Of a DNA stretch of 64,000 nucleotides, positions 9,824 through 64,000 are shown one piece after another. The DNA lies in NCBI GenBank assembly GCA_017962665.1, contig JAGCUU010000004.1, positions 18,645-82,644 on the forward strand. The letters are read 5' to 3'. The notes under the pieces were generated by a model. That model had not been told where the DNA came from and searched no databases. It saw only the letters and a program-made list of their open reading frames with translations. Position numbers and translations under genes: made by a program. Source of the DNA: Bacteroidales bacterium. GTDB lineage: Bacteria; Bacteroidota; Bacteroidia; Bacteroidales; P3. Each line of letters starts with the position of its first letter. Position 1 is the first letter of the stretch.

Positions 9824-9866
9824 AGTCTTTTATCATTATAATAACCACACTTTCACAAAACAATAT

Positions 9867-14531: not shown

Positions 14532-14564
14532 AATATTTTTAAATTGAGAATTGAAATCAGTTTT

Positions 14565-15122: not shown

Positions 15123-15130
15123 TTTTCAAA

Positions 15131-15631
15131 TTAGTTCAAGTCTGCATTTTCAAGTTCTTTGGCGATAATCTCGTTCGCACGCTGCTTGTCGGAAAGTTCA
15201 TTTTTCATAAGCTTTTCGGCGATTTCAATAGACAGGTTGGCTATTTGGTTCTTGAGATCGTGAATAGCTTTGAGTTTTTCGTAGTTGATGTTCTCGCGGG
15301 CTGCTTCAACGATACGATCAGCCTCCAATGTTGCTTTCTGACGGTATTCCTCTTTAATCTGTTCGCCTGCGAGCCGTGCATTGCGCAGTATTTCGTCACG
15401 TTGAATCTTAGCCTCGGCAAGCAGTTTCTCGTTATCGGCTTTAAGCTGTGACATCTGAGCCTTGACAACCTCTGCCGCATTCAAGGAATCGCTGATTGCC
15501 TTCTCACGGTCCTTGAGCGATTTGAGTATAATCGGCCAGCCCCATTTCATCAAGATGAACGCCAGGATACCAAATGAGATAAGCATCCAGAAAATAACAC
15601 CAAGACCAGGACTTACTAAGGGATTATTCAT
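15131..15631 (-). CDS. atpF: ATP synthase subunit b
   Basis: Membrane-anchored peripheral-stalk subunit. A single N-terminal membrane helix (LGVIFWMLISFGILAFILM) is followed by WGWPIILKSLKDREKAISDSL and then a long charged coiled coil up to about residue 155, the classic layout of the b subunit. The 166-residue length is normal. It begins 123 nt after atpE, a gap that holds a strong stem-loop (15706-15744), and ends 8 nt before atpH. Confidence 0.94.
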   Translation of the reverse strand: MNNPLVSPGLGVIFWMLISFGILAFILMKWGWPIILKSLKDREKAISDSLNAAEVVKAQMSQLKADNEKLLAEAKIQRDEILRNARLAGEQIKEEYRQKATLEADRIVEAARENINYEKLKAIHDLKNQIANLSIEIAEKLMKNELSDKQRANEIIAKELENADLN

Positions 15632-15705
15632 GATATAATGGTTTGTATATTAGAGCTTATTATAGTAGTTGAGAACTTCTCATCAAAAAAGACATAATAA
15701 TAAAT

Positions 15706-15744
15706 GGTCTGTCCCCGTAAGCCCATCGCCGTCGGAGACAGACC
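15706..15744 (-). other. Stem-loop immediately downstream of atpE
   Basis: Arms 15706-15717 and 15733-15744 pair over 12 positions with one mismatch (GGTCTGTC on one side, GACAGACC on the other) around a 15-nt loop. It begins 10 nt after the atpE stop codon and is followed on the transcript by an AT-rich stretch that includes TCTTTTTT. It could be a partial terminator or a 3'-end protector that makes atpE mRNA more abundant than the rest of the operon, matching the 8-15 copies of subunit c needed per complex. The structure is read from sequence; the function is inferred. Confidence 0.7.
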
Positions 15745-15754
15745 GATTTGCCGA

Positions 15755-16388
<634 letters not shown>

Positions 16389-17954
16389 CTAAATGAGGTC
16401 GATAGAATAGTGCAAGCCGACATTCTGACGGCGAGCCATTGCCTGCTTGATGATAAGGTAGGCACAGGCAATAAGGTTGCGCAACTCTGAAAGCGGTTCA
16501 GTGAGTACGCTGCGATTGTAGAGTTCCTCCGTCTCACGGAAGATAAGATTTAGACGGTCGAAAGCTCGCTGAAGACGCAGGTCGCTGCGGACTATACCCA
16601 CATAGTTGGACATGATTTCCTGCAGCTCTTTTTTTGTCTGTGTAATAAGGACCATCTCTTCATTGAACACCATACCTTCAGCATTCCAATCGGGAATTTT
16701 GTTGTAAAGATCGCTCTGATTATTCTTGGCAAACTGGTCAATTGCATCCATAGCAGCATTATGAGCATACACCACAGCTTCGAGCAACGAATTACTTGCC
16801 AGACGATTGCCACCATGAAGACCTGTACATGAACATTCACCGGCAGCATAAAGATGAAGTATTGATGAACGTCCGTTACGGTCAACTTTAATGCCACCGC
16901 ACTGATAGTGTGCAGCAGGACGGACAGGAATCATGTCTTTGGTGATATTAATACCTAGCTCGAGACATTTGGCATATATTGTCGGGAAGCCATTAATGAG
17001 TTCATTCTTGCCTATTCCACGTGCATCGAGCCATAGATAGTCAACACCGGCAAGTTTCAACTCGTTGTCGATGGCACGTGCCACAATATCACGCGGAGCA
17101 AGAGACAGACGTTTGTCATATTTCTGCATAAACTCCTTGCCCTGGCGATCTTTCAGTATAGCACCGGCACCACGCATTGCCTCAGTGATAAGGAATGCCG
17201 GTTTTTCAGCAGGGTTATAAAGACTTGTTGGATGGAATTGCATAAATTCCAAATCTTTCAACACTCCACGCGCCCTGTGAACCATTGCCACGCCGTCACC
17301 AGTGGAAATAATGGGAGTGGTAGTGGTGGTATATACATTGCCCATACCTCCGGTGGCAAGAAGTGTAACCTTGGCAAGATAGGTATCAATCTGATTTGTT
17401 CTGCAGTCAAGGGCATAAACACCATAGCAATCAATATTTGGCGTGTGCTTAGTGACACGCTGTCCCATATGATGCTGTGTGATGATATCAATAGCAAACT
17501 GGTTCTCCTTCAATTCAATGTTTGGATGGTCGTGTATGGCTTGGAGCAGTCCGCGTTCGATCTCAGCACCGGTATTGTCCTTATGGTGAAGAATTCTAAA
17601 CTCTGAATGGCCTCCTTCGCGATGCAAGTCGAAACGTCCGCCACTCTCCTTGTCAAAATTGACACCATACTTAACCAGCTCCTGTATTCTCTGTGGGGCC
17701 TCGCGTATAGTCATTTCCACCACCTCGCGGTCACATATTCCATCGCCGGCAACAAGGGTGTCGGCTATGTGTTTGTCAAAACTGTCTGTGTCGTACATGA
17801 CAGCGGCTATGCCTCCCTGGGCATATTTTGTAGAACCCTCTGAAGCTTCACCCTTCGAAAGGATGCATACTTTGCCGTATGGGGCAACTTTTAGAGCAAA
17901 ACTAAGGCCGGCAATGCCAGAGCCAATAACTAAAAAATCTACTTCGTAACGCAT
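16389..17954 (-). CDS. nadB: L-aspartate oxidase
   Basis: FAD enzyme that oxidises L-aspartate to iminoaspartate, the first step of de novo NAD synthesis. The N-terminal dinucleotide fold is VDFLVIGSGIAGLSFALKVA (GxGxxG at residues 11-16). Further family marks are STKYAQGGIAAV, HREGGHSEFRILHHKDNTG, FMQFHPTSLYN, ITEAMRGAGAIL, PAAHYQCGGIKVD and CTGLHGGNRLASNSLLEAVVYA. The 521-residue length is standard. nadA and nadC are not in the window. It lies 48 nt downstream of the phosphodiesterase gene on the same strand; the spacer holds short GATGTAAGA-like repeats and no clear promoter. Confidence 0.96.
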   Translation of the reverse strand: MRYEVDFLVIGSGIAGLSFALKVAPYGKVCILSKGEASEGSTKYAQGGIAAVMYDTDSFDKHIADTLVAGDGICDREVVEMTIREAPQRIQELVKYGVNFDKESGGRFDLHREGGHSEFRILHHKDNTGAEIERGLLQAIHDHPNIELKENQFAIDIITQHHMGQRVTKHTPNIDCYGVYALDCRTNQIDTYLAKVTLLATGGMGNVYTTTTTPIISTGDGVAMVHRARGVLKDLEFMQFHPTSLYNPAEKPAFLITEAMRGAGAILKDRQGKEFMQKYDKRLSLAPRDIVARAIDNELKLAGVDYLWLDARGIGKNELINGFPTIYAKCLELGINITKDMIPVRPAAHYQCGGIKVDRNGRSSILHLYAAGECSCTGLHGGNRLASNSLLEAVVYAHNAAMDAIDQFAKNNQSDLYNKIPDWNAEGMVFNEEMVLITQTKKELQEIMSNYVGIVRSDLRLQRAFDRLNLIFRETEELYNRSVLTEPLSELRNLIACAYLIIKQAMARRQNVGLHYSIDLI

Positions 17955-18002
17955 TTGATGTAAGATGTTAGATGTATGATGTAAGAGGTTCTTGTTGATG
18001 TT

Positions 18003-18776
18003 TTATAAGAAAAGGTTGGGGTCGTTGGTAATGATGCCGTCGACAGGAAGTCGTGAAGCACGGCAAGGCCTCTTCACAGTCCATATCTTCACCTCCCTAC
18101 CCTGCCTGTGAATACGTTCCACATAGCGGGCCGTGACAAAATAACGACAGATATTAAACGAGCTTATAAAAGGATAGTCTTCGACATTGGAGACCTTGGT
18201 AAACGACAGCAGTTCAAGTCTCAAGTCCGGCAACAAGCGGTGCATTTCCTTCAGGACATAGTCATTGAAAGATTGGACAACAACTGTTTCCTGCATGTCA
18301 TATTTCACGATAAGATCAGCCACCTTTTGCTCTATTCCTTCATATTGATCCTTCTTCTTTTTTATTTCGAGCAAAAGGGCACAGCGTCCTTTTACGAGCT
18401 GTAGCACCTCTTCCAATGTAGGGACAGTCTCGTCCGAAGGTGTGCCGTCGCCGTTCAGCAACCTGAGACCTCGAATCTGGTTCAAAGTGAGTTTCTCTAT
18501 CTTGCCCTTTCCATTGGTGGTGCGGTCAATTGTAGCATCATGGCATACCACCACCTCACCGTCAGCTGTAAGATGTACGTCTATCTCCACCATATCGGCA
18601 CCTGCCGCGATACCCTTGGAGATGCACGACAGACTGTTTTCCATTCCCAAGTCGGCGCCACCGCGATGAGCTACGATAAGAGGCTTGTTTGGGTTTAATG
18701 TAGGAGTGTTGTTGGTGCAGGCAATAGTCATAAGCGATAGCATTAGTAGTTTTAAAAAAGCTAATGAGGTTTTCAT
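18003..18776 (-). CDS. Glycerophosphodiester phosphodiesterase family lipoprotein
   Basis: Predicted to hydrolyse glycerophosphodiesters to glycerol-3-phosphate and an alcohol. The start at 18776 is chosen because its ATG overlaps the upstream stop as ATGA, and because it begins a lipoprotein signal (MKTSLAFLKLLMLSLMTIAC) with lipobox TIAC; a longer frame to 18839 would bury this signal. The GDPD motif is complete: VAHRGGADLGMENS, then DMVEIDVHLTADGEVVVCHD, and DRTTNGKG, supplying the catalytic histidines and metal-binding acids. At 257 residues it is a compact single-domain member, expected to be anchored in the inner or outer membrane. Coupling to a very large STAND NTPase is unusual. It might be unrelated phospholipid salvage or a membrane-damaging partner; sequence alone does not decide. 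Confidence 0.88.
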   Translation of the reverse strand: MKTSLAFLKLLMLSLMTIACTNNTPTLNPNKPLIVAHRGGADLGMENSLSCISKGIAAGADMVEIDVHLTADGEVVVCHDATIDRTTNGKGKIEKLTLNQIRGLRLLNGDGTPSDETVPTLEEVLQLVKGRCALLLEIKKKKDQYEGIEQKVADLIVKYDMQETVVVQSFNDYVLKEMHRLLPDLRLELLSFTKVSNVEDYPFISSFNICRYFVTARYVERIHRQGREVKIWTVKRPCRASRLPVDGIITNDPNLFL

Positions 18777-21700
18777 GATACTTTGATGTTGATTTTTAAC
18801 AAATCCCGAAGCAACATACGCACAACAATGGCGAACCAATCGGAAAAATCCTTCGTCTTGTCAACGTATTGTGCTGCATTATAGCAGAAGTCATCGACAG
18901 GTTCCTGATGGATGAGGGCATATATCACAAAGTTACCGAAGCGATGTGTAAGCAGGTCTGACAACTTCTCTCCGCAAGGTGTGTAGTTGAGAATCTCGTC
19001 GCGATAGTTGGCAACTCCCGGAAACTGGAAATGCGGCATCTCGTTTGTGAGGAAAGTATTTATTTCAGCTGGCGCATAAGATTTGGCAGTGCTTAAAAAT
19101 GTGGCAAGCCGCGAGTTTACCACCTCTACCAGGGCATTGGAGGAGACATTGGAAAGTATATGCGACATCAGGTCGAGTGCTGTGTGAATATATCCGGAAT
19201 CTGACACGAGTTCAGAAATATTGTCCAGCATGTGTGCGAGAAGCTCACCGTCATCGTTAGCCACTGCCTCGTCAATCAACTCATAGAACAATGGTGCCGA
19301 CTGATAAGGCTGGCGACGACGGTCTCCGTTACGATATGCATATACCATCGCATACCATGTCATCACGTTACGCTTGTATTTTTGCCGAGGATTGGCGATA
19401 TGGCTGTTTGGCGCTACAAAAAGCCCCTTCAGTCTGCGGGTCCAGTCCACACACCAGCGTCCAAGCATATCGAACACCTGTTCAGGCATTTCCGGCATTT
19501 TCATTCCAAGCTGATAGAGGACGTATATAATAGACATTTGTGAATAGTCCCACCACTGCGTGTCACGGATATTTCCTCCATCGGTCTCACCGGAACAGAA
19601 CTCGGAATCAAAACGAGTGAGCAACGGTTCAACAGACTGCCATGAGCAGACGCCATTAATCACCAACAGACGTTCCAGGACAAAATAGGAAAGGCTGTCT
19701 CCTGTCCTATAGGCTGCATATATCTTATCGGCATATTTGGCAAAGTCCGGTGCGTCGGAAGCATTTGACTTGGCATAGTAGCGGGAATACTGGTAAATAT
19801 GCTGCATTATCTCCGGCAAATCGGAGCGGCACCAGTCGCCACTATCGGGTATTGCCGTCCAGAATCGCTGGTATTCAATAGCGTTGTTCACATAATCGCT
19901 TTGGAATGTCAGCTGCCTGCGCATCACGATATTGAGTGCTGGCAATATAATACGGATAAGAACGTGGTTTAGCGTAAGGTGACGCACTGTAGCACGAAGC
20001 CGGTCAAGCATCTGTGGCACTCGCTGCTGTTCGGATTGGTCGCCTGTGAGCAACACATCGATTATCAGCATTACCAACAGACGTGTTGCCGTTTCCAGGA
20101 AAGTGATGGTACGCCGACGCGAATTTCCTGTAACAAACAGTCGTGGCAATGACCGCCCGTCAAGCCAGTCGAACATACGCGACGCTATGAGTTCGGAGAG
20201 ATTTTTCTTTATCGGTGTGCCTCCGATGGTTATATGCTGATGAGTCACATAGTAAGACTGGAGACAGACAGCATCCTTCACCTCTACGAGCGGATCGTCA
20301 GTAAGCATCCATAGCAGTTCGAAAGGATCTGTTCTATAAAGTTCCTCATTGAAATAGTCGGTAAGAAATATGCCACCAAGCAGAGTCTGTATTGCCATAG
20401 TACGCATGTGTATCAGTGGCATCAGCTGCACGTGCAATCCGTTGAATCGGGAAATAACCTCTGCGGTGCCTTTATTGGTGGCTATCAATTTGGAGAGCTT
20501 GTTGAATTCAGTAATGACTGACTGGATATCACCTTTATCGGTATCGAGTTCCGGAAAACGAAGCACCAAGTCTTTTTCAATATTGAAGAGTTCCTTTTCA
20601 TAGTTTTCGCGTACAAGCACATTCATCACGTCGGTAAGGACATTCATCATGAGCAGATTGTCGCTCTGCTGTGCTATCAGTGTACGTATCGTTGTGCTGT
20701 CGCCCGACTCAACATAATCCATTATTAGCAAGTTGCGCAAAGCTCCAAGCATAACCTCGTCAGGGTTAACTCTGGAAAGGAATGACACCAGGTTGTCAAC
20801 AGAATGGCTTTCGCTCTTCCTTATGGCCAACGCCAGCATATACTCCAGGAAACGTTCATAGACAAACTGGATTTTATCCTCTTCAGCATAACGCAATACA
20901 GGACGCTCCGGGCGGTTGATAAGCTCGGCAAAAGCTATGGTAATGGCATACTTGTCGTTTTGCCGCATAAAGACAAGCTTGGCAAGACGGTGAAGCGGAT
21001 GATGTCTGTCATCGTAAGCTTTATATAATTCAGGCACCGAGACACTATTTTCCGCCTTGCCGCCAATATAGCCGTCAAGTATTGTTTCCGTAACCAAGTC
21101 AAGAATCTCCACCTGTCGGCTACCTGCATAGGCATTATGGATGTTTTCGTAGAGTTGTCCCCATAGGGCAAGCGATGTCAGGCTTGCGGTCTGATCAGGC
21201 ATTGAGGTTCCAAGATAGTTGATACAGGCTATCTTCAGCACCAATGGATCCTTGAGCCTGATGGCAAGAGTACGCGACAATGAGGAGAGTGGTGTGTGTA
21301 TGCTATAAAAATCGCTGTAGACTGCATAAGCCCTTCCGAGTTCATCATCGTTGAATCCCCGCACCACTGTAGCGTTGTCGCCTTTAGGAGTATAAAAAAA
21401 CGATTCAGGCAAATCGGAAGTGAGAGGCTTCAGTATCTGGTTCCATGTGTAGTTGCGACAAGTAAACAACAGCTTGAAACGAGTATATTTCTCTCCGACG
21501 AACAACGCCAACAAGTCTTGAAGTAACGCTGCTGCAGACCCTTCACTGGCATTTGTGTTCTCCTCCTCCCTATTCATTGAGAGATAGTTTTCGCACTCGT
21601 TCAGTGCGTCGACAAGTATCAGCATGCAGGCTCCGTCGTTTTCCGCAGCCTCATGCAGTTCATCGAGTACTTTTGTGATTTTCTTTCGAGGCGAAAGGTC

Positions 21701-54001: not shown

Positions 54002-54025
54002 AGAAATCTTTACAACCACAAAAAA

Positions 54026-54061
54026 GGTAGCCGGAGACATTTCTCTGGCTATCTTTTTTTT
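54026..54061 (+). terminator. Intrinsic terminator after the S46 peptidase gene
   Basis: A 12-bp stem with G-U pairs (GGTAGCCGGAGA at 54026-54037 with TCTCTGGCTATC at 54042-54053), a 4-nt loop and a run of eight Ts. It begins 25 nt after the stop codon and isolates the following island from peptidase transcription. Confidence 0.9.
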
Positions 54062-54187: not shown

Positions 54188-54219
54188 TTTGCAAAAAAGG
54201 AAAATAATCTGTACCTTTG
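54188..54219 (+). promoter_or_regulatory. Promoter at the head of the TIR/RyR island
   Basis: TTTG (54188-54191), 20 nt, then TACCTTTG (54212-54219): a full match to the Bacteroidetes consensus. Transcription should begin near 54226, which rules out the ATG at 54189 and fixes the MscS-like start at 54258. No equally good promoter was found in the gaps downstream, so the island may be largely one transcript. Confidence 0.8.
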
Positions 54220-54257
54220 CACCTACTTTTCAAGAAAATATACAAGAATATACAAGC

Positions 54258-55391
54258 ATGTTTTTTATCACAAAACTCAGCAAGAAAAATCTTGCATCAG
54301 AAAACATTTTCCGTCAGATATTTGGAGCTTTGATACAATGGCGTACAAAGCAATTAATTGTTTTCATATTTGTATCCTTACTTCTATGGGGTGTAACCTA
54401 TGTTCTCTCACCCAAAGTCACCCAAGCAACTTATAAGTTACTGGCACTAACCGCCATCGTGTGGTTGACAGTGAAAGTATGTAGTATTTTGACCGACACC
54501 TTCAGCCTTCGAAAGAAAGAATCGAACATTACCCTCTGCCAAAGCATTATCCTCATAGCCATAGGACTATGGATTCTCGGCTTTATTGTCATCTTTGACA
54601 TCGAGAACAATCCCACATTTGCTGCGGCCTTTGGTATTGTCGGTCTCATGATTGGATGGATTTTCCAAGACAGAATAAAAGGTATCGTTGCTTTTTTCCA
54701 TCTCCGCATGAACCATCTTCTTTCTATCGACGATTGGATTATGGTTCCATCTTACGACGTTGACGGAGAAGTCAAGCACATAACACTCACTACTATAACC
54801 ATATACAATTGGGATACCACCACTTCTACAATTCCCATTTATGCGCTTCATGACGGTCATTTCAAAAACCTCCAGAATATGACGGAGAACAGGACCTATG
54901 GGCGCAGGATGAAAAAAACATTCATCTTTGATACCAGCTGGTTTCGTCCTCTCACCAATGACGAACTCAATTCCATAAAAGAAAAAATCAAAGGGAATGA
55001 GGCTATAGACAAGGGGAAAAGAGACGATATCATCCAAAACATCTTCGAAAAAGAGCTTCGGGAAGGTATGCTAAATGCAGAGCTATATCGCATGTACATA
55101 TATCATTGGCTTATGAACAATCCACACATCTCTCAACAGCCCAGTCTATTAGTACATTGGACAGATCACACGGAAGGTGGCATGATGCTTGAAGTGTACA
55201 CTTTTATCACAGATGGAGGTTTTGTCCCGTTCGAATGGCAACAATCCAAAATTATAGAACACATACTAACATCTATGGACTGGTTTGGACTTCGCTTATA
55301 CCAGAGTCCTTCGGCATACGATGCAAGCAACAGCAATATATACCTCACCCAAGAACCCGCATCATACACAAAAGAGATTAACCATGACTAA
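54258..55391 (+). CDS. MscS-family channel, YbdG/MscM-like
   Basis: Inner-membrane mechanosensitive-type channel, 377 residues from the start at 54258. Four hydrophobic segments lie in the first 165 residues (LIVFIFVSLLLWGVTYVL; LLALTAIVWLTVKVC; SIILIAIGLWILGFIVIF; AAAFGIVGLMIGWIFQDRI), the last being the pore-lining TM3. The beta domain that follows has LLSIDDWIMVPSYDVDGEV and TTITIYNWDTTTSTIPIYAL, close to the NWDKT-x-TTIPTY pattern of YbdG. The C-terminal domain is alpha/beta. It leads an island of TIR, macro, SIR2-like and RyR genes and overlaps the next gene by 8 nt, so a role as an effector pore opened by a signal, not only osmotic protection, is plausible. The MscS call is sequence-based; the effector role is inferred. 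Confidence 0.85.
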   Translation: MFFITKLSKKNLASENIFRQIFGALIQWRTKQLIVFIFVSLLLWGVTYVLSPKVTQATYKLLALTAIVWLTVKVCSILTDTFSLRKKESNITLCQSIILIAIGLWILGFIVIFDIENNPTFAAAFGIVGLMIGWIFQDRIKGIVAFFHLRMNHLLSIDDWIMVPSYDVDGEVKHITLTTITIYNWDTTTSTIPIYALHDGHFKNLQNMTENRTYGRRMKKTFIFDTSWFRPLTNDELNSIKEKIKGNEAIDKGKRDDIIQNIFEKELREGMLNAELYRMYIYHWLMNNPHISQQPSLLVHWTDHTEGGMMLEVYTFITDGGFVPFEWQQSKIIEHILTSMDWFGLRLYQSPSAYDASNSNIYLTQEPASYTKEINHD

Positions 55392-56505
55392 TTGTATTGA
55401 AAAGCCCTTTGAATTTTATAGAGGAAACGACGGCTGTGAATTCCCCAAGACGACAGTCAACAACTGGTATAAAGCCCGCGCCTACATATTGGATAGATTA
55501 AAAGGAATTGCATTCAAACCCGATGAAGACACACACCTGCATGTAATAGTCAATGGCGACAGTCCTTTAATGTTGTCCGTAGTGCGCCAATTGGCATTAT
55601 CGGCCCACTATATCAACTACGATGAAGAAAAGATGCTCAACCGAACAGTTGTAACCATTGTTAGCTCCAAAGGGGAAGAGGTTATTGCAGAATTAAAAAA
55701 AGAGGAATACCTGAACAACCTATTAGACCTTTGCAAATACACTGTCAACAACACACCTGAGCACGAAGACTCCTATATTGATATTGAGTTTGAAGTTGCG
55801 ACAGAGTTGCCGAAAATAGACGAAAAAAATCAAAACGAGATTCTGATTCAAGAAAAAGAGGTAGACTCATACTGCAATTCCAAATCCGAAGACGAAATCT
55901 ACAGTATAGACACACGAAAGGCTCAATACGCAGACAGAATGTATTATCTCGGAACACTTATAGAAAATCTTCCTGCCGAGAACATTCACGATGCAAGTCG
56001 CTATTCGTTGGCTCTTGATGTGTTTCAATTCAATAAACTTCAAGACCCATTAGGCAATTTGATAAACAGCTCGGAATGGGAAAACAACCAGGCAAGCGTA
56101 AGAAACGGACTTTCGAATCTGTTTTGTGCCGATTGTTTTGAGTCAAGAGAGGCCTCCATCGAGTTATGTCGGAAGGACAAAAAACAAAAGACCGCCGAAC
56201 TATGGACCAACTACAACGAGGCGTTGTCCAAGAGCGAACATGCCCGTTGGGTTGTCGAGAAGCTCATTATGGGATTTCGTCCCCTTACCAAGGAGGAAAG
56301 GCTTGAAGACGAAAGTATAGCATACGATAAAAAAAGAAGGAAAGAATATCGCGACAACTTGAAAAAAAGAGCAAAAGACCCTGCCCATATCGATCTTTGC
56401 TCATACAGGACCCTTCGCCGTGTCAATCCTGACGATATGAAATACGACAGCTTTCTGATGCTGGCCATACCCAAGATTCTTGAAAAAACAAAAAGAAACA
56501 AATAA
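55384..56505 (+). CDS. Soluble Rossmann (RCK-like) protein with C-terminal RyR domain
   Basis: A 373-residue protein starting at the ATG that overlaps the MscS-like stop (55384); the longer frame from 55285 would read through that gene. An N-terminal alpha/beta segment (HLHVIVNGDSPLMLSVVRQL and TVVTIVSS) looks like a TrkA/RCK-type Rossmann core. A helical middle region leads to a C-terminal ryanodine-receptor-type (RyR) domain: SEHARWVVEKLIMGFRPLTK, ending YDSFLMLAIPKIL. The same three-part order makes up the C-terminal half of the channel encoded at 61369, including EH-x-RW-x-VEKL-x-MGFR. It therefore looks like a pore-less paralogue, perhaps a ligand sensor or regulator for one of the island's channels. 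No membrane segments are present. Confidence 0.75.
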   Translation: MTNCIEKPFEFYRGNDGCEFPKTTVNNWYKARAYILDRLKGIAFKPDEDTHLHVIVNGDSPLMLSVVRQLALSAHYINYDEEKMLNRTVVTIVSSKGEEVIAELKKEEYLNNLLDLCKYTVNNTPEHEDSYIDIEFEVATELPKIDEKNQNEILIQEKEVDSYCNSKSEDEIYSIDTRKAQYADRMYYLGTLIENLPAENIHDASRYSLALDVFQFNKLQDPLGNLINSSEWENNQASVRNGLSNLFCADCFESREASIELCRKDKKQKTAELWTNYNEALSKSEHARWVVEKLIMGFRPLTKEERLEDESIAYDKKRRKEYRDNLKKRAKDPAHIDLCSYRTLRRVNPDDMKYDSFLMLAIPKILEKTKRNK

Positions 56506-56516
56506 TCGTACAAATC

Positions 56517-57608
56517 ATGAAAATGCAGAGAGATTATACATACAACAACTCGTTATTGATAGTTAAATTCGGGGACATTATCGAAACAGAAACCGACGTG
56601 CTGGTAAACTCAGACGATTACTTGCTTCCCATGAAAGACGGGCTCTCCGGCTATATTCTGGAAAAAGGAGGGCAAGAAATAATGAATGACGTGATAAAAA
56701 AAAGGGATGTTGAACTTGGTGATGTTGTCGTGTCTACCGCTGGGAAACTGCCTCACAAGTTCATCTTCCACTGTATAACAGTCCCTGAAGACCAAATGTT
56801 CAAGAATTCCGACGCCGAATCACAGGAGTCTATGCGTGAGGAGATGGAAGAGTATGTCATACGACATTCATTATCAAAATGCTTTAGATTGCTTTCCGCT
56901 ATGGATCTTGAATCCATCTCTATTCCTTGCATTGGTCTCAACCGCGCAGGTTTTTCCTTTGAAAGGGTAGGAATGATTATGTCGGAGGTCATTGCAGATT
57001 TTCTTCTAAAGACAAACAAAACATATAAAGTAGAGCTTTGTATTTGGAATGTCCCGAAGCAGTACGACATGATGGACTATATAGGTTTCTTCGAGCAGTT
57101 CGCTTTGCGTGTTCCAGCCAAGTCAGACATGACTGTATTAAACAACAAAGTCAACTCCGCAATGTCCAAATTGGAGACATCTCACATTACAAACAAAAAC
57201 AACATCAACGTATTTATCAGCTATTCTCATCAAGACAAGGAAATTGCAGAGCGAATATGCACAATACTGTCCGGATATGGAATCACCTATTGGATAGATC
57301 GTGAAGGAGTACGACATGGCGATGATTTCAAAGAGGACATCGTTGATGCCATTGTAAGGTCCGAGATTTTATTGTTCATTTCATCAGCAAACTCCAACAA
57401 TTCACGTAATACAATCAAGGAAGTCAGTATTGCCGAGAACAGCAACAAGCCAATCCTTCCTGTAAGAATTGACGATTCACCATACAACAAGAGTCTTGAA
57501 TACGACTTATGCAACAGGCATTGGATACAACTGAAAGATATGAATAGTTTCGACGAATTGGGTCAAGAACTCAACGATAACATTCGTTTCTATCTGAACC
57601 GAAAATAA
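56517..57608 (+). CDS. Macro domain-TIR domain fusion protein
   Basis: A 363-residue, two-domain protein. Residues 10-190 form a macro domain (IVKFGDIIETETDVLVNSDD, then GLSGYILEKGGQEIMNDV and LPHKFIFHCIT), a fold that binds ADP-ribose and related nucleotides. A linker (about 205-230) leads to a TIR domain: NINVFISYSHQDKEIAERIC, GITYWIDREGVRHGDDF, ILLFISSANSNNS, then IKEVSIAENSNKPILPVRI. Glu302 in KEV sits at the catalytic glutamate position of NAD-cleaving TIR enzymes. A TIR that makes an ADP-ribose-type product fused to a domain that binds such products suggests built-in sensing, feedback or product handling. It starts 11 nt after the RyR gene. Confidence 0.88.
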   Translation: MKMQRDYTYNNSLLIVKFGDIIETETDVLVNSDDYLLPMKDGLSGYILEKGGQEIMNDVIKKRDVELGDVVVSTAGKLPHKFIFHCITVPEDQMFKNSDAESQESMREEMEEYVIRHSLSKCFRLLSAMDLESISIPCIGLNRAGFSFERVGMIMSEVIADFLLKTNKTYKVELCIWNVPKQYDMMDYIGFFEQFALRVPAKSDMTVLNNKVNSAMSKLETSHITNKNNINVFISYSHQDKEIAERICTILSGYGITYWIDREGVRHGDDFKEDIVDAIVRSEILLFISSANSNNSRNTIKEVSIAENSNKPILPVRIDDSPYNKSLEYDLCNRHWIQLKDMNSFDELGQELNDNIRFYLNRK

Positions 57609-57688
57609 TATCCATAAGATATACAGCCTAACAGAAAAAAGTCCTAAAAACACAAGATCAATTCTTCGCATTCAGATAATAAATTGTA

Positions 57689-59020
57689 ATGAGCCGCAAA
57701 TTTAACACGAAGAAATTTATCAAGGATGTACTCAATGACAAGTACGCCCTTGTCATTGGCAATGAGATTATTCTTGATACCAAGATTGAGCCCACTGCTG
57801 ATATTCACCAATATTTCCTTAGAAAGGTAAACGAGAACTCAAATGTGCAGTATGAGAACTATCATGAAATTGCACTCGACAAAAACGAACGCATCAACCC
57901 TATTCGACGACTGATAGAAGATGGTGACATCACGTTTCGTGCAGAGGATGTATCTAAAGACTTGATGGCCTTGCTTGAAACACGCCTCTTTACAACGGTA
58001 CTGACTACAACTACGGATGGGTTTCTTGAAGCAGCCATGCGAAAGGTGTGGGGAAATGAACTTCGTGTGGTGAACATCTATGATAAGGAAACTGTGGATG
58101 AACTACAAAAGGCTTTGAAGGCTTGTCGCAGAGGGAAGAAATACAACCAGCCTACATTGATTTATGTATTCGGCAAATTGGATATAGACGACCTCGCCAA
58201 GAAATATATCAAAACTGATGCCGATGCCATCCTACTTATTGAGAAGTGGATGCGCATGGATGTGGAAGCCAACAACGAAATGCTCGACTTCATCCGCAGC
58301 AAGCGTCTTCTTGCCTTGGGCTGCAAATACGACAACTGGTACTTCCGTTTCTTCTGGTATGTGATGACCGGTGTGAACAAGAGTAGCGAGGAGAATGCTT
58401 ATGACGGACGTGGAGAGGTAGCCTTCTCTCTTGATAAAACAGACAAGACCGAAGGCAAGTTGCTTCAGTTCCTTGACCGCACAGACATTTGCATTCTTGG
58501 AGATGCAACGACTTTCATCACCAATATCACTAAGACACTGACCGAAGACAGTGACGATGCTCCTTTCCGTCAGCAGATTGTGGAGTGCCGTCGGCGTGGG
58601 GGTATCTTCATCTCCTATTGCAGCAAGGATGCTTTGGCTGCCAGTCAGTTGTTCTTCCAACTCTGCGAGAAAAAATATGATGTGTGGATTGACAATGCTC
58701 GGTTGTATGGTGGAGACAACTATGAGAGTGGGATTACCGATGCCATAAATGCCGCTAAGGTGGTCATCACAGTGCTTTCTGCTCATGTGGCAGATGACCT
58801 GAAGCTAGGAGACACAGACCATTATTACAACAAAGAATGGCGTATAGCCCAGCAATTTGACGATAAGACTATTATACCATTGGCTATTAATGGCTACGAC
58901 TTGCGTTCAGACTATCATCAGGTTTATGAGTCTATTATTACTCAGCAGCCTTCAGGCATAGACTTGATGGACTCTGACGGATTCTCTAAACTTATCACTT
59001 CTATTAACGAACACCTGTAA
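57689..59020 (+). CDS. Degenerate SIR2-like domain-TIR fusion protein
   Basis: A 443-residue protein. Residues 1-290 follow the plan of bacterial SIR2-like (STALD-type) domains: YALVIGNEIIL near the start, LFTTVLTTTTDGFLEAAMRK where TTNYD-x-x-x-E is usual, LIYVFGKLD where the family has LHG, and RLLALGCKYDNWYFRFFWY where GYSF-x-D is usual. The catalytic His is thus Phe, and the Gly-rich loop is degraded, so this part may bind rather than cleave NAD. Residues 305-443 are a TIR domain: GIFISYCSKDALAASQLF, YDVWIDNARLYGGDNY, VVITVLSAHV and NKEWRIAQQF with Glu383 at the catalytic position. The nSTAND gene starts 3 nt later, implying joint action. Confidence 0.8.
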   Translation: MSRKFNTKKFIKDVLNDKYALVIGNEIILDTKIEPTADIHQYFLRKVNENSNVQYENYHEIALDKNERINPIRRLIEDGDITFRAEDVSKDLMALLETRLFTTVLTTTTDGFLEAAMRKVWGNELRVVNIYDKETVDELQKALKACRRGKKYNQPTLIYVFGKLDIDDLAKKYIKTDADAILLIEKWMRMDVEANNEMLDFIRSKRLLALGCKYDNWYFRFFWYVMTGVNKSSEENAYDGRGEVAFSLDKTDKTEGKLLQFLDRTDICILGDATTFITNITKTLTEDSDDAPFRQQIVECRRRGGIFISYCSKDALAASQLFFQLCEKKYDVWIDNARLYGGDNYESGITDAINAAKVVITVLSAHVADDLKLGDTDHYYNKEWRIAQQFDDKTIIPLAINGYDLRSDYHQVYESIITQQPSGIDLMDSDGFSKLITSINEHL

Positions 59021-59023
59021 GCC

Positions 59024-61258
59024 ATGATTGATATATTCAAGCGTTGGATTTCCCATTCCAAGGAGCAAGACATAGACGACAGCCAGAACCCTTGGGCTGG
59101 TCTGGCATCATACGAAGACCCGGAAACTGCAGAGCGAAAACTGAAGTTCTGTGGACGTGATGATGACAGCTATGACCTGGCTCGTCTTATCATAGGCAAT
59201 GTTTTTGTGACGCTCTATGGCAAGAGTGGTATCGGCAAAACATCCCTTCTCAATGCAGGTGTATTCCCGGAACTCCGTGAGGAACAATACACACCTGTTA
59301 GTATCCGTCTTGGAAGGAGGGACGAGGAACAGCCCCAGAGCTATCAGACCATGATAGTTGAAGCCGTAAAACGGGTTGTCACGAGAGTAGAAACCATTAA
59401 CGTCATTGGCGAACAGCAAGACCAGCAATCCCTAGACTACCTTTGGAACTACTTTGCCCGTCATCGATTCTATGACAAATACGATGAGCCGACCACTCCT
59501 GTTATCGTCTTTGACCAGTTTGAAGAGGTGTTCCGTGGCCATCGCGATGAGGCAGGGACCTTGCTTCGCCAATTGGATTATCTCAATGACAAAGACCATA
59601 CCCTCGATATTTGCGAAGTGGACGGTCAGTCTTATCGTCATGAGCAGAACTTTCGCTTCGTCGTTTCCATCCGGGAGGATGACCTCTACCGATTAGAAGA
59701 CAGCATCGACAACTGCTACCTCCCTGCCTTAAAACGCTGCCGATACCGCCTTCGTAGCCTTTCAGAAGAGGGAGCACGGGAAGTGATTCTCATTCCAGGT
59801 AAAGGACTCTTCCGTGATGAAGAGCAAGATCAAATCGTCAATACTATTATCAATATTGTACGAAATAAGGAAGATCAAAGCATTAGTACGAACCTTTTGT
59901 CTCTCATCTGCAATCGCATATTCGTGGAGTACCAGCGCCGACAAGATCTTGATCATATTAATCAAGCTCTCGTTGACAATTTTATTAAGGACAACCCTTT
60001 TGAGCACTTTTATAACGAGGCCACCCATGGTTTTTCCAACCGCGAAAAGAACTACATAGAAGATCATTTTGTTGATAGCACCGGGCGACGCAACTCCTTG
60101 CCGGAAAGCGACTTCCTGCTTCATGTAAAGAATGGTTCTAGACTACTGGAAGGGAATGCCAGAATTCTCCAAAAAATAAGTACATCATCCGATGGAAGTA
60201 GTAACAGGATAGAACTGATTCATGATTCTTTTTGTGAGCCATTGGTACATCTTAGAGAAAAACGCGAACGGAGGAATAGAATTAAATTGATTGCTACTAT
60301 AGCGGCCATATTTATCATATTGCTTGGAATTATTGGATCAATACTTTATTTATATTCTAGAAACCAGACACATGAAGTCACCATTGCTTCTCAAAAAAAG
60401 ACCATTGCTATAGAGCGCGACTCTTTGAAAAAAGCTAATAATTTATTAGATACGATGAAATCTGCCATCAGGCAAAAAGAAGAAGAGTTGTTGTTGAAAC
60501 AGCAAGAACTAGAGAAGATAAATGAAGAGTATGGGTTGAAACAATTTGCATTAGCGCAGAAGACGGAAGAACTGTATAAATACGAAACAATGTATGAAGT
60601 AGACAATGAGAATAATATTAATGGCGCTGATATGAATATCACATACATTTATGATGGTATAAAGTATCCACGATATGGGATCTTTAAGCCATCCGATTTG
60701 GATAATTGGAAGTCATTGAACGAAGAAGTATGTCGAAAAAAAATACCTGAACTTTTAAATGACTCTTTGAAAACACTTGATATTAATGATGAAATGATTG
60801 AAAGCGATCCTGGGCTTGTATATCTCATATTAAAATCACAATCCCTGAGTACTATTCATGACAAACAGGAATGGTTTAACTTGTGGTATATTATGAATGA
60901 GGAACAAGTATTTAAGCTATACGATATACTAACTCGGGAAAGATATAAAATGTCCGTTTTACAGTATAGAGATAAAGCGGCTATGCTTAATAATGAAGCT
61001 TATAGATATGCCCGTAATGGGGATTTTGATACAGCCTTGAATACCATTGAAAAATCCATAGAAATGGCTCGTATTGCTTATGCCAGCAAGTATGATTCTA
61101 AGGGAGAAATTCTACTGATGAAAGGCGACACTCAGGAAGCGGTGAAAATGTGGAATAAAGTTCTGGAAATTGCCCCCGACTTCCTTGGCTACTATGGTAG
61201 TACTCCTTTCTATGAGCAATTGCGTAAACGTGGTTTGGTGGGAAAAAATACGAGATAA
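59024..61258 (+). CDS. nSTAND1-type NTPase with membrane anchor and C-terminal TPR-like repeats
   Basis: A 744-residue protein. Residues 22-330 are a STAND NTPase of the novel (nSTAND1) type: NPWAGLASYEDPETAE, a P-loop GKSGIGKTSLL (Lys72), and Walker B VIVFDQFEEVF (Asp164). A sensor-like FRFVVSIREDDLYRLE follows. A membrane helix (about residues 420-445, IKLIATIAAIFIILLGIIGS) follows the NTPase, then a coiled coil (IAIERDSLKKANNLLD; EEELLLKQQELEKINEEYG) and two TPR-like repeats near the end (NNEAYRYARNGDFDTALNTI; GEILLMKGDTQEAVKMW). The second half is visibly richer in A+T than the first. It lies 3 nt after the SIR2-TIR gene, a split version of the TIR-NTPase-repeat layout of NLR-like proteins. 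It probably acts as sensor or switch for that TIR. Confidence 0.85.
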   Translation: MIDIFKRWISHSKEQDIDDSQNPWAGLASYEDPETAERKLKFCGRDDDSYDLARLIIGNVFVTLYGKSGIGKTSLLNAGVFPELREEQYTPVSIRLGRRDEEQPQSYQTMIVEAVKRVVTRVETINVIGEQQDQQSLDYLWNYFARHRFYDKYDEPTTPVIVFDQFEEVFRGHRDEAGTLLRQLDYLNDKDHTLDICEVDGQSYRHEQNFRFVVSIREDDLYRLEDSIDNCYLPALKRCRYRLRSLSEEGAREVILIPGKGLFRDEEQDQIVNTIINIVRNKEDQSISTNLLSLICNRIFVEYQRRQDLDHINQALVDNFIKDNPFEHFYNEATHGFSNREKNYIEDHFVDSTGRRNSLPESDFLLHVKNGSRLLEGNARILQKISTSSDGSSNRIELIHDSFCEPLVHLREKRERRNRIKLIATIAAIFIILLGIIGSILYLYSRNQTHEVTIASQKKTIAIERDSLKKANNLLDTMKSAIRQKEEELLLKQQELEKINEEYGLKQFALAQKTEELYKYETMYEVDNENNINGADMNITYIYDGIKYPRYGIFKPSDLDNWKSLNEEVCRKKIPELLNDSLKTLDINDEMIESDPGLVYLILKSQSLSTIHDKQEWFNLWYIMNEEQVFKLYDILTRERYKMSVLQYRDKAAMLNNEAYRYARNGDFDTALNTIEKSIEMARIAYASKYDSKGEILLMKGDTQEAVKMWNKVLEIAPDFLGYYGSTPFYEQLRKRGLVGKNTR

Positions 61259-61368
61259 TTAGAAGTTGAATCATATTTTTGGGAGAATTATAAAAAGAAC
61301 ATAATTTCATCAAACATTATTAGTACCATCAAAGATGCAATATAATAATTTGCCAAATAGCATCAATT

Positions 61369-63570
61369 ATGGACAAAACAAATTCATCAATAAAACTCTG
61401 GTTCGATAGGTTATTGTCGAAGAACCTGATAGTACAGTTTGCTTTTTTGACTATCGTCTTGGTTGTACTGTTTCTGTTGTCATGGTTTTTTCTGCAGTTG
61501 TCAGGATGTGAATGGGAGCAATTTACGGATAATAACATACCCGAATACTTGTTGCCGCTCTATTTACTTATTGATTCCAATGCGTTTAACAACCTTTACA
61601 TCAATGGTGTTCATGGATGGGCATTATTCGTAAGCAGTATAATTTACGTAATTGGATTGTTCATATTCAATGGCATGATTATATCCGTCCTAACCAATGC
61701 CATTGAACGCCGTGTTCAAAACCATCGAGAAGGTCACATTCACTATTTGAAATCAGGCCACTATGTGGTGATGGGATGGGATGACATGGTTCCATCTATC
61801 ATCACTCACATTTTCGACAAAGATAAAGATGCATACGTGTTGTTGATGAGTGCCGCTGAAGCCGATAACATCCGAGAGAGACTGCGTAAAGTATTTAATG
61901 AGAAACAGATAAAGAAAATCATTATCAACTTTGGCCATCGCATGTCGAAGGATTACTATAAAGACATACATATTGAGGCAGCAGAACAAGTATATATTGT
62001 CGGAAAACGTTCTTTGCCCGCTCATGATGCCATCAATGTTGAGTGCGTCGATAGCATTTGCGCCTATCTGAATCAGCCTGAGGTGGAAGGTCACCCAAAA
62101 CGTATTGTTTGTGTGTTTGATGATTTGGACACCTACTCGGCCTTCAAGACTTCGGAAATATTTGGTAAAGTCAATAAACTTGGTATAGAATTCGTCCCCT
62201 ATAACTTTTATGCAGGATGGGCCAAGCAGGTTTTTGTCAAGGGCTTCCATAAGGACTTGGATAGACCGGGTGAAGAAATTGCATATCCTGCGGTTTATGG
62301 CAAAGGATATAGTGAGAATGACAAAACTGCTCTAACTGAGAACGATCAACGTTACGTTCATTTGGTATTTGTGGGCACCACCAATTTTGCCGTTGCTTTT
62401 GCAATGGAGGCTGCTCATGTGTTACACTTCCCAAATGGCAACAAAAAAGCCACCCGCATCACCTTCATTGATTTGAATGCCGATAAGGAGATGGGAGAGT
62501 TCATCACGCGCAACCGTCATTTCTTTGAAGTGCAGCAATATCGTTATATTGATGTGTCTGGCGAGTATAAAACTGGTTCATATTCATCATTACCTTGGCG
62601 GCAACCAACAGTGTTTAACAAAGAACAAGGATATGAAAGATACGTCGATTATGATTTCTTGGATGTGGAATTTGAATTCATAAAAGGTGATATCCTTTCT
62701 GCCTCCGTTCAGAATCTTATCTGTGAATGGGCGAGTGACAAGAAAGGACAGTATCTATCTATCTTCCTTGCTATGACCAATCAACGGCAGAACTTTGTCA
62801 TGAGCATGAATATGCCGGATGATGTTTATAACAACGAGATTCCTATATTCATTCGTCAAGACCGTTCTGATAACTTTGTAAGTGACTTGCGCGAAGCTGA
62901 TGAAGCCATCAAGAATGACCCCAAGAAGAATGTATATTCAGTTGTCAAATCAGGAAAACTTGTAGAGGAAAGGAATAAACCTGGCCGATATTCCAACATC
63001 TATCCTTTTGGAATGAACGAGACGGCATACAGTGCCGACGATAAATCACTACAACGAGCCAAGCTTATCAATTATCTTTATTGCACAATGCTTCCAACAG
63101 GTCATTTCCAGAGTATATTGGAGTTGGATACCATGTCAAAGGATGCAATAGAAACCGAGGCCAACAAACACTGGGAAGGACTCTCAGTTGCATTGAAATG
63201 GTCCAATCTCTATAATGCTTATAATTTAAGAATAAAATTAGTCATTTTAAGAGTATCGAGAGGGCTTAGACAAGATGACATTAGCCACGACACATGCTCT
63301 ATTTCTGACAACGAAGCGGAGATGTTAGCTCGTATGGAGCACAATCGTTGGAATGTAGAAAAACTATTAATGGGATTCCGTAAACCACGTCGCGAAGAAG
63401 ATAAATATGCTGATGAAAATGTTGCATTCAAAAAGGAATTAAACCGGAACAAGGGACGTTTCATCCATCACGACATAAGACCATACGATAAATTAGATGG
63501 AATCAAGAAATTGGATAAAGAGTTTGCACTATATATCCCGTGGATAATTAAAATGACTGAGAAAGAATGA
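61369..63570 (+). CDS. Two-TM ion channel (CASTOR/POLLUX-like) with RCK domains and C-terminal RyR domain
   Basis: A 733-residue membrane protein. Two helices (IVQFAFLTIVLVVLFLLSWF and WALFVSSIIYVIGLFIFNGM) flank a pore-loop-like stretch, PLYLLIDSNAFNN, where IDSN resembles the AD-(S/A)-G filter of CASTOR/POLLUX channels. The first Rossmann/RCK domain starts SGHYVVMGWDDMVPSII; a second starts VHLVFVGTTNFAVAFAMEAA. The last 80 residues are a RyR domain with MEHNRWNVEKLLMGFRKPRR and YDKLDGIKKLDKEFALYIPW. The C-terminal half parallels the pore-less protein at 55384. Such a layout suits a ligand-gated cation channel, perhaps gated by a nucleotide made by the island's TIR proteins. The preceding 110 nt hold no convincing promoter. 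Confidence 0.82.
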   Translation: MDKTNSSIKLWFDRLLSKNLIVQFAFLTIVLVVLFLLSWFFLQLSGCEWEQFTDNNIPEYLLPLYLLIDSNAFNNLYINGVHGWALFVSSIIYVIGLFIFNGMIISVLTNAIERRVQNHREGHIHYLKSGHYVVMGWDDMVPSIITHIFDKDKDAYVLLMSAAEADNIRERLRKVFNEKQIKKIIINFGHRMSKDYYKDIHIEAAEQVYIVGKRSLPAHDAINVECVDSICAYLNQPEVEGHPKRIVCVFDDLDTYSAFKTSEIFGKVNKLGIEFVPYNFYAGWAKQVFVKGFHKDLDRPGEEIAYPAVYGKGYSENDKTALTENDQRYVHLVFVGTTNFAVAFAMEAAHVLHFPNGNKKATRITFIDLNADKEMGEFITRNRHFFEVQQYRYIDVSGEYKTGSYSSLPWRQPTVFNKEQGYERYVDYDFLDVEFEFIKGDILSASVQNLICEWASDKKGQYLSIFLAMTNQRQNFVMSMNMPDDVYNNEIPIFIRQDRSDNFVSDLREADEAIKNDPKKNVYSVVKSGKLVEERNKPGRYSNIYPFGMNETAYSADDKSLQRAKLINYLYCTMLPTGHFQSILELDTMSKDAIETEANKHWEGLSVALKWSNLYNAYNLRIKLVILRVSRGLRQDDISHDTCSISDNEAEMLARMEHNRWNVEKLLMGFRKPRREEDKYADENVAFKKELNRNKGRFIHHDIRPYDKLDGIKKLDKEFALYIPWIIKMTEKE

Positions 63571-63581
63571 CTGAGAAAGAA
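63554..63581 (+). repeat. 14-bp tandem duplication at the channel gene's 3' end
   Basis: TGACTGAGAAAGAA occurs twice in direct succession (63554-63567 and 63568-63581). The second copy supplies the TGA stop of the channel gene. Without it the frame would run six or so codons further. It looks like a recent slippage event with little effect on the protein. Confidence 0.9.
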
Positions 63582-63659
63582 ATGTCGCATGTATTTAGAT
63601 GATTGAATAACTCCACAGGCTGTCTTGCTGAATTAATATAGTAAACGATTAACCACAAA

Positions 63660-64000
63660 ATGGCGGAAAACAAAGAATACTACGCATTCATAAGCTACAA
63701 GCGGGAAGATGAAAAATGGGCGAAGTGGCTGCAGGATAAGTTGGAACATTATCGGTTCCCAACAAATCTTAATGGCCGTACTGACCTGCCAAAGAATATC
63801 CGTCCCACCTTCCGCGATGTCACAGACTTGAAGCCTGGACTGTTGGCAGAGGAAATAAGCAATGCCCTACACAATTCCCAATGGCTGATCGTTGTGTGCT
63901 CTCCACGTAGTGCCAAGAGTCCCTGGGTGTGCAAGGAGGCGCAAACATTCATCGATCTTGGGCGAGAAGACCATATCATTCCTTTTGTTATCGAAGGTAA
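63660..64000 (+). CDS. TIR domain protein, 3' end outside window
   Basis: The frame opens at the ATG at 63660 and stays open for 113 codons to the window edge. It encodes a TIR domain from its first residues: EYYAFISYKREDEKWAKWLQ, a longer central loop with RPTFRDVTDLKPGLLAEEIS, WLIVVCSPRSAKSPWVCKEA with Glu93 at the catalytic position, and DHIIPFVIEG. The SYKRxDE start and FRD-x-TDL loop resemble TIR proteins of Bacteroidales that carry long C-terminal repeat regions, which would lie beyond the window. It follows the channel gene after 89 nt and is the third TIR domain in 7.5 kb. Confidence 0.85.
   Translation, partial: MAENKEYYAFISYKREDEKWAKWLQDKLEHYRFPTNLNGRTDLPKNIRPTFRDVTDLKPGLLAEEISNALHNSQWLIVVCSPRSAKSPWVCKEAQTFIDLGREDHIIPFVIEG

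What the first reader, a model, noticed from the sequence alone, without database searches (positions are those of the whole stretch)
54188..64000. Candidate new immune/signalling island: MscS, RyR, macro-TIR, SIR2-TIR, nSTAND1, RyR-channel, TIR
Seven consecutive plus-strand genes combine NAD-processing domains (three TIR domains, one SIR2-like), an ADP-ribose-binding fold (macro), an NLR-like NTPase, two RyR domains and two different membrane channels, behind one strong promoter and an isolating terminator. TIR proteins in Thoeris and related systems make NAD-derived signals that activate effectors. Here a plausible flow is: the STAND or macro partner senses, TIR makes a nucleotide, RCK-RyR and MscS-type channels open and depolarise the cell. 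I know of no described system with this exact gene set, but I cannot search. It might also be two or three adjacent systems rather than one.
Basis: partly seen in the sequence, partly recalled or inferred. Interest (0 to 1): 0.92.

Follow-up and report, generated by a model that had tools for sequence, protein, structure and literature searches.

The report
Bacterial RyR-domain channels paired with TIR enzymes
A gut-type bacterium carries, in one gene cluster, ion channels bearing the ligand-binding domain of animal ryanodine receptors next to TIR enzymes of the kind that make NAD-derived alarm signals, and relatives show this pairing again and again, suggesting a bacterial immune circuit in which such a signal opens a channel.

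Summary
The seven genes are real. They read best as three separable units: genes 1-3, MscS + soluble RCK-RyR + macro-TIR; genes 4-5, SIR2-like-TIR + nSTAND1, a two-gene NLR-like cassette that also stands alone elsewhere; genes 6-7, a 2TM-RCK-RCK-RyR channel (CASTOR/DMI1-like first RCK) + TIR, the TIR cut by the contig end.

The strong result is the pairing. Of 47 non-redundant relatives of the channel with 5 kb held on both sides, 30 have a TIR gene within 5 kb; 36 of 37 such TIRs are on the same strand. In the family sample 11 of 27 channels lie near a TIR, against 1 of 73 methyltransferase genes and 0.26 expected. A small canonical RyR gene is a second recurrent neighbour. At one chromosomal site the fused channel (L094) is replaced by MscS + RCK-RyR (L149), with homologous TerB-like, TPR and TIR genes.

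RyR residues that bind cADPR in phage RyDEP are conserved. Most likely the TIR makes an ADPR-type signal, RyR senses it and the pore opens. Signal, binding, gating and antiphage activity are inferred; no structure model was obtained.

The parts
54020..54059 (+). terminator-like hairpin after the upstream S46 peptidase gene
   Evidence: 18 pairs, T-run; upstream gene Peptidase_S46
54188..54219 (+). Bacteroidetes-type promoter-like site (TTTG-N20-TAnnTTTG), the only one in the island
   Evidence: consensus recalled
54258..55391 (+). gene 1, MscS-type channel subunit (3 TM-like stretches + beta-domain)
   Evidence: homologues next to gene 2 homologues in L060, L061, L149, L150
55384..56505 (+). 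gene 2, soluble RCK-like + RyR receptor subunit; overlaps gene 1 by 8 bp
56215..56496 (+). RyR domain of gene 2 (EH..W, H, D conserved)
56517..57608 (+). gene 3, macro-TIR
   Evidence: macro alignments; TIR glutamate
57689..59020 (+). gene 4, SIR2-like-TIR; the SIR2 part lacks the (recalled) catalytic Asn and His, the TIR Glu is kept
59024..61258 (+). gene 5, nSTAND1 NTPase with one TM-like stretch and a TPR tail; C-terminal part differs in relatives (WD40 in L064, LRR in L083)
61369..63570 (+). gene 6, 2TM-RCK-RCK-RyR channel
63301..63567 (+). RyR domain of gene 6
63660..64000 (+). gene 7, TIR protein, 3' end lost at the contig end (relative in G014: TIR-WD40, 926 aa)

Best explanation
The cluster is a composite of RyR-TIR immune units. 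The core logic, seen twice here, is a pore driven by an RCK-RyR receptor, fused in gene 6 and as a separate subunit for the MscS pore in genes 1-2, together with a TIR enzyme. On infection the TIR, alone or driven by the NLR-like nSTAND1 through the SIR2-like-TIR adaptor (genes 4-5), is predicted to turn NAD+ into an ADP-ribose-type signal. The RyR domain binds it, the RCK ring moves, and the channel opens and collapses ion gradients. The macro domain fused to the TIR in gene 3 would bind ADP-ribose products. Shown here: the genes, the recurrent same-strand RyR-TIR neighbourhoods, the pore swap, and conservation of the RyR ligand residues and of the TIR glutamate. Inferred: the signal, its binding, gating, and antiphage function.
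For: (1) TIR genes lie within 5 kb of 34 of 58 channel relatives with both flanks held, and of 30 of 47 after removal of relatives at 80% identity or more; 36 of 37 TIRs in the reduced set are on the same strand. Density is 20 per 100 kb within 1 kb and 2-3 at 1-10 kb (named set), against 0.075 TIR domains per 100 kb over 30 whole genomes. (2) Control: 11 of 27 channels but 1 of 73 N6-methyltransferase genes of the same 30 genomes lie within 5 kb of a TIR; 0.26 channels expected. (3) A canonical RyR gene is within 5 kb of 20 of those 47; PF02026 confirmed on five examples. (4) Same-site swap L149/L094/L093. (5) All 4 other loci with a full-length gene 2 homologue have MscS directly upstream. 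(6) RyR ligand positions: 102 of 105 channels keep the motif (one miss is cut by its contig end); 39 of 48 canonical RyR proteins carry all four at RyDEP spacing (RyDEP residues from PMC13232231). (7) Channel profile against PDB: CASTOR 7.6e-4, DMI1 9.7e-4, RyR1 chimera 0.037. (8) TIR glutamate in 83 of 85 domains. (9) TIR neighbourhoods occur in many branches of a FastTree channel tree, 14 changes over 71 scored loci.
Against: 17 of 47 non-redundant channel loci show no TIR within 5 kb; some channels (L035/L036, L050/L051/L055, L093) sit alone at what look like fixed chromosomal sites, so the channel may have a TIR-independent role. TIR partners are exchanged often: Mantel r is only 0.21. Soluble gene 2 RyR reaches canonical RyR only at 45.1% probability directly. 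RyDEP work is on phage proteins, a preprint; I know of no bacterial RyR channel shown to bind cADPR. No structure could be computed. Genes 4-5 are an independent cassette, and no fetched relative has the full gene set. A TIR density of 3.1 per 100 kb at 5-10 kb from channels shows that some channels lie in TIR-rich islands.
Confidence: 0.5

Rival explanations
1. Defence-island juxtaposition: the three units in this window are independent systems that happen to lie together; only gene groups 1-2(-3), 4-5 and 6-7 work together.
For: Genes 4-5 stand alone in L064, L066 and, at 83% identity for gene 4, in L151; genes 1-2 occur without 4-7 as a set in L060, L061, L149, L150; no fetched relative has all seven; gaps of 80 and 110 bp separate genes 3/4 and 5/6, while gaps inside 1-3 and 4-5 are -8, 11 and 3 bp.
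Against: All seven are co-directional with one promoter-like site. SIR2-TIR/nSTAND lies directly beside a gene 6-type channel in L091 and one 137-aa ORF away in L083, in the same order as here; directly beside a second RyR channel family in L062 and L063; and one ORF from a RyR channel-like gene in L157.
Confidence: 0.35
2. RyR domains here end the signal (hydrolyse or sequester it, as phage RyDEP and its homologues do) and so protect the host from its own TIRs; the channels are regulated by something else.
For: 39 of 48 canonical small RyR proteins keep all four RyDEP positions, including the catalytic H and D; RyDEP cleaves and its homologues sequester cADPR isomers (PMC13232231, text parts 1-2).
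Against: In genes 2 and 6 the RyR domain is joined to an RCK module and a pore, an architecture that suggests gating; six of eight tested RyDEP homologues bind and none of the eight cleaves.
Confidence: 0.2
3. The channel is a housekeeping ion or osmotic channel and the TIRs are guards that sense its disturbance by phage, the channel being upstream of the TIR.
For: Channels without TIR neighbours at what look like fixed chromosomal sites; frequent exchange of the TIR partner.
Against: The conserved RyR ligand residues would have no role; canonical RyR genes recur beside the channels.
Confidence: 0.15

Closest known systems
Thoeris (types I and VI as in PMC13232231; SIR2-SLOG and TM-macro ThsA as in PMC11204291, passages)
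   Same: TIR protein encoded beside an effector that is expected to sense an ADPR-type nucleotide; TIR glutamate kept; one Thoeris form uses a macro domain
   Different: No ThsA found; sensor would be RyR and effector a channel; here macro is fused to the TIR, not to a membrane segment. NCBIfam ThcB4 hits the TIR parts of genes 3 and 4 far below its cut-off (33.2 and 23.9 bits, cut-off 220); PADLOC ThsB models hit the TIR part of gene 3 only, and no Thoeris model hits genes 1, 2 or 6
Phage RyDEP (RyR-domain defence evasion protein, PMC13232231)
   Same: RyR family; same four ligand residues at the same spacing in most small RyR partners, same residue types in the channels
   Different: Phage counter-defence protein, not a host channel subunit
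CASTOR/DMI1 plant channels
   Same: first RCK domain of the gene 6 family, E 7.6e-4 to 1.4e-3 by profile
   Different: gene 6 ends in a RyR domain and is bacterial; the match covers about 110 residues only
Animal ryanodine receptors
   Same: RyR (R12) domain and an ion pore in one protein; cADPR long implicated (PMC13232231 text)
   Different: no similarity found outside the RyR domain
bacterial NLR-like systems (nSTAND1, passage in PMC8195603; Avs and TIR-NLR recalled)
   Same: STAND NTPase with varying C-terminal repeats (TPR, WD40, LRR) beside an NAD-active domain
   Different: effector is a separate SIR2-like-TIR protein

Membership tests
Thoeris | ThsB-type TIR protein | tested here: inconclusive
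   ThsB_TIR PF08937 hits genes 3 and 7 above the Pfam cut-off, PADLOC ThsB models hit gene 3 down to 1.6e-6; TIR alone is not diagnostic
Thoeris | ThsA effector with SIR2-SLOG or TM-macro | tested here: not met
   no ThsA model among the hits; macro is fused to TIR without a TM-like stretch
Thoeris | signal activates the neighbouring effector | not testable with these tools
   needs biochemistry
RyR domain family PF02026 | Pfam RyR match | tested here: inconclusive
   window proteins: none; five small RyR neighbours in relatives: 1e-33 to 1e-35; channel profile against canonical RyR 89.9-96.1%; gene 2 profile 5.8-45.1%
RyR domain family PF02026 | ligand residues H, W, H, D | tested here: met
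CASTOR/DMI1 channels | TM pore + tandem RCK homologous to CASTOR | tested here: inconclusive
   profile match in the first RCK only, E about 1e-3; 2 TM-like stretches
SIR2 NADase effectors | catalytic Asn and His (recalled) | tested here: not met
   absent in 9 of 9 aligned SIR2-TIR proteins, read by eye from the alignment
TIR NADases | conserved glutamate | tested here: met
   all three window TIRs, 83 of 85 domains
antiphage defence system | protects against phage | not testable with these tools
   needs phage challenge

The most novel reading that the evidence does not exclude
Bacteria possess a widespread immune system in which a TIR-made cyclic ADP-ribose-type nucleotide opens a RyR-domain ion channel. 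It comes in two interchangeable pore forms (CASTOR-like fusion, MscS plus separate receptor), with a small RyR protein as modulator and optional NLR-like triggers. It would be the prokaryotic counterpart of the disputed cADPR-ryanodine receptor link in animals.
Probability: 0.35. Interest if true: 0.94.

Novelty: new variant of a known kind. Interest (0 to 1): 0.82.

Why it matters
If true, it adds a new effector class (RyR-gated channels) to TIR immunity, gives host RyR domains a function, offers a reason why phages carry RyR proteins that destroy or sequester cADPR isomers, and makes the old question whether cADPR acts directly on RyR domains testable in a small bacterial channel.

Tried and rejected
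One seven-gene system: rejected, because no fetched relative has the set and genes 4-5 stand alone. 'SIR2 as a second NADase': lowered, since the recalled catalytic residues are missing in 9 of 9. 'Strong sigma-70 promoter': the tool finds 30 sites against 26.5 by chance; the Bacteroidetes-type site is the better candidate. 'General defence-island clustering explains RyR-TIR adjacency': tested with N6-methyltransferases, 1 of 73. Phylum-wide PF02026 search: 21 of 316 genomes, own included; the matches outside the order lie in ORFs of other lengths (many 880-918 aa), not looked into. Single-protein PDB searches with genes 2, 4 and 6 gave nothing useful. Co-divergence of channel and TIR: weak, Mantel r 0.209, 11 of 5000 permutations reach it, 37 of 41 pairs used after dropping near-identical channels; shared ancestry of the genomes was not controlled. 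Paper searches that led nowhere. The 2015 paper on nucleotide-centred conflict systems that I recalled is not held, so I cannot say whether it mentions RyR-TIR neighbourhoods.

Rows dropped before counts: L126, L127 and L136 (no channel ORF of 560 aa or more). In the flank counts 45 of 103 loci lack 5 kb on one or both sides. Three loci occur in both sets with identical channels (L034/L109, L035/L112, L036/L113); they are still double in the 103 and 58 and removed in the 47. In the tree count loci with short flanks were scored only if a TIR was seen, which favours TIR. TIR counts use a profile built here from window and relative TIRs; they leave out proteins that look TIR-like by eye in L042, L060 and L124. 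Searches list the best matches only (80 of 230 relatives kept), so the loci are a ranked sample.
Full report
What is there. The window is G000:C24:18645-82644 of a 1.88-Mb, 76.6% complete assembly. The contig ends with the window, so the island is open at its right end. Seven plus-strand ORFs follow an S46 peptidase gene and an 18-pair terminator-like hairpin. A single Bacteroidetes-type promoter-like site lies at 54188-54219 (the consensus is recalled). From the ATGs the gaps are: genes 1/2 overlap by 8 bp, 2/3 11 bp, 3/4 80 bp, 4/5 3 bp, 5/6 110 bp, 6/7 89 bp. Genes 1-3 and 4-5 are therefore tight groups.

Domains. Pfam finds the MscS beta-domain in gene 1, Macro and TIR in gene 3, TIR in gene 4, nSTAND1 and TPR in gene 5, TIR in gene 7, no family at E 0.1 in gene 6 and only a weak DUF (0.074, below cut-off) in gene 2. 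Genes 2 and 6 share an RCK-like part (hhalign 99.7%) and a C-terminal part (99.5%). The C-terminal part of the channel family matches canonical RyR at 96.1%, E 2.9e-9, or 89.9% with larger sets, against at most 1.7% in 20 column-shuffled controls; the gene 2 family does so at 5.8% and 45.1% in the same calls. A profile of 47 channels (A5) finds CASTOR (7.6e-4), DMI1 (9.7e-4) and, through the RyR part, a RyR1 chimera (0.037) among solved structures. Gene 6 has two TM-like stretches before the RCK part, gene 1 three, gene 5 one, gene 2 none. So gene 6 reads as a 2TM-RCK-RCK-RyR channel, and gene 2 as its RCK-RyR half without a pore; that the two RCK-like parts of gene 6 are both RCK is by position and sequence pattern, the two did not match each other (4.1%).

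Ligand residues. The preprint PMC13232231 (text parts 1 and 2 of 6 read; passages) reports that phage RyDEP, a RyR-domain protein, binds and cleaves 2'/3'cADPR through H75, W78, H100 and D117, that six of eight tested homologues bind these signals, and that sponge-type homologues defeat Thoeris. Of 48 canonical RyR proteins in my loci, 39 have H, W, H, D at exactly this spacing (+3, +25, +42); 102 of 105 channels keep EHxRW...H...D with a longer loop. The glutamate column of TIR domains is Glu in 83 of 85, including all three window TIRs.

RyR-TIR neighbourhoods. The channel occurs in 25 of 149 sampled genomes of the family, own included, and a scan of genome contigs gave 79 loci (best of 230 relatives), by their titles Bacteroidales or groups within it where the title says so, 76 of them with a channel ORF of usable length. 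TIR genes lie within 5 kb in 34 of the 58 loci with both flanks held, and in 30 of 47 after removing channels at 80% identity or more; 36 of 37 of these TIR genes are on the channel's strand. In the named set the density is 20 TIR genes per 100 kb within 1 kb of the channel (29 of 29 on its strand) and 2-3 farther out to 10 kb, against 0.075 TIR domains per 100 kb in 30 whole genomes. As a defence-island control, N6-methyltransferase genes of the same 30 genomes lie within 5 kb of a TIR in 1 of 73 cases, channels in 11 of 27 (Fisher P 9e-7; 0.26 expected by random placement). Canonical small RyR genes lie within 5 kb in 20 of the same 47, both in 17. On a FastTree tree of 104 channels the TIR neighbourhood appears in many branches, with 14 changes between present and absent over 71 scored loci. 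Clustering of same-strand neighbours of 91 anchors gives, after the channel, small RyR (37 loci), two TIR groups (24 and 17 loci) and a group of TPR-type proteins (22 loci; Pfam checked on L149, L057, L045 and L061, the last a CHAT-TPR) as the most frequent.

Pore swap. Full-length gene 2 homologues were found in two other genomes of the family sample (a third match is the RyR part of a channel) and two of 393 of the order sample (three counting the own genome). All four have MscS directly upstream; three of four have a canonical RyR gene beside them (L060, L149, L150). TIR genes follow in L061 (TIR-FGE, TIR below the Pfam cut-off) and L149; L150 is cut by its contig end; L060 instead has a PARP-like gene and a protein without a Pfam hit that looks TIR-like by eye. 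L149 shares its chromosomal site with L094 and L093: flanking genes are 78-93% identical on both sides. L094 reads TerB-like, fused channel, TPR, TIR; L149 reads TerB-like (68%), MscS, RCK-RyR, small RyR, two TPR, TIR (68%); L093 has the channel alone. The simplest reading is that MscS + gene 2 and gene 6 are interchangeable outputs of one TIR pathway.

Genes 4-5. They occur in the same 6 of 149 family genomes, adjacent or within 2 kb, and gene 4 in 12 of 324 order genomes, own included; in 9 of the 11 others nSTAND lies next to it, not in L159 and L160. L151 (SIR2-TIR 83%, nSTAND 70% over its N-terminal part), L064 and L066 are pairs without RyR, MscS or macro hits nearby, so this is a separate two-gene cassette whose nSTAND tails vary (TPR here, WD40 in L064, LRR in L083), as expected of an NLR-like sensor. 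RyR genes lie beside or near it in L062 and L063 (a second TM-RCK-RyR family), L083 and L091 (gene 6 family), and L153, L156, L157, with an edge fragment of the RCK family in L155; not, in the stretches held, in L064, L065, L066, L151, L152, L154, L158, L159, L160 or L161. L076 has the pair 4 kb from a channel. L076, L083 and L091 were fetched through the channel, so they do not count towards a rate: in the gene 4-anchored sets, window left out, RyR-bearing genes are near in 2 of 5 and 3 of 11, plus the L155 edge. The SIR2-like part lacks the recalled catalytic Asn and His in 9 of 9, so it is more likely an adaptor than a second NADase.

Gene 3. Its matches at E 1e-8 in the family sample lie in the TIR part. 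Macro proteins 39-40% identical to its N-terminal part stand near channels in L073 and L084.

Mechanism, likelihood and novelty. I put about 0.5 on a TIR-made ADPR-type signal acting through RyR on the pore, and 0.35 on the full bold version (the section on the most novel reading). Shown: genes, neighbourhoods, site swap, conserved residues. Inferred: signal, binding, gating, defence. Not Thoeris in the strict sense, since no ThsA was found. In the paper library, searches for RyR domain + TIR + bacteria + defense, Thoeris + RyR + channel, ryanodine receptor + SLOG + TIR, RyR + TrkA + TIR + MscS, RyR domain + prokaryotic + Bacteroides, ryanodine + TIR domain + operon + cADPR and MscS + TIR domain + RCK + phage listed the phage RyDEP preprint but, by titles and abstract starts, no paper on host RyR channels paired with TIRs; listings were capped and most subscription papers are not held. 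Other papers: passages of PMC11204291 and PMC8195603; term searches in PMC9503650 and PMC7159879 found no occurrence. RyR genes are common in phages: 166 of 50,697 phage records match a canonical operon RyR.

Noticed in passing
L006 (G000:C27:12000-31900), 3037-19900: A second RyR cluster in the same genome: a soluble RCK-RyR protein and two canonical RyR genes, with two proteins that look like CHAT-type TPR peptidases, a kinase-like fragment and an FHA/trypsin-like protein (these by eye).
   Followed up: partly
L149 9370-13231; L094 10780-12747; L116 13630-17660; L105 13621-15684: TPR-type proteins with a signal-peptide-like start (by eye) and a QGYVKTKGR...PG motif sit between or after the pore and the TIR; export would be odd for a cytosolic TIR circuit.
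   Followed up: partly
L149 6537-6857; L094 8331-8651; L091 9593-9940: Small TerB-like protein (weak PF05099, 0.0022, below cut-off) directly upstream of either pore type.
   Followed up: no
L062 3589-5751; L063 13293-15413; L157 11480-13819: Further, divergent TM-RCK-RyR channel-like proteins next to or near SIR2-TIR/nSTAND.
   Followed up: partly
L060 13140-14189: PARP-like protein (PF00644, 1.9e-6) with hydrophobic N-terminal part beside the MscS + RCK-RyR group.
   Followed up: no
phylum search, genomes of genus g266: Two RyR matches in tandem, mostly in ORFs of about 880-918 aa, in the matching genomes of one distant genus.
   Followed up: no
L129 12548-13417: Transposase-like ORF (by eye) just downstream of a RyR channel in a Bacteroides genome.
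   Followed up: no
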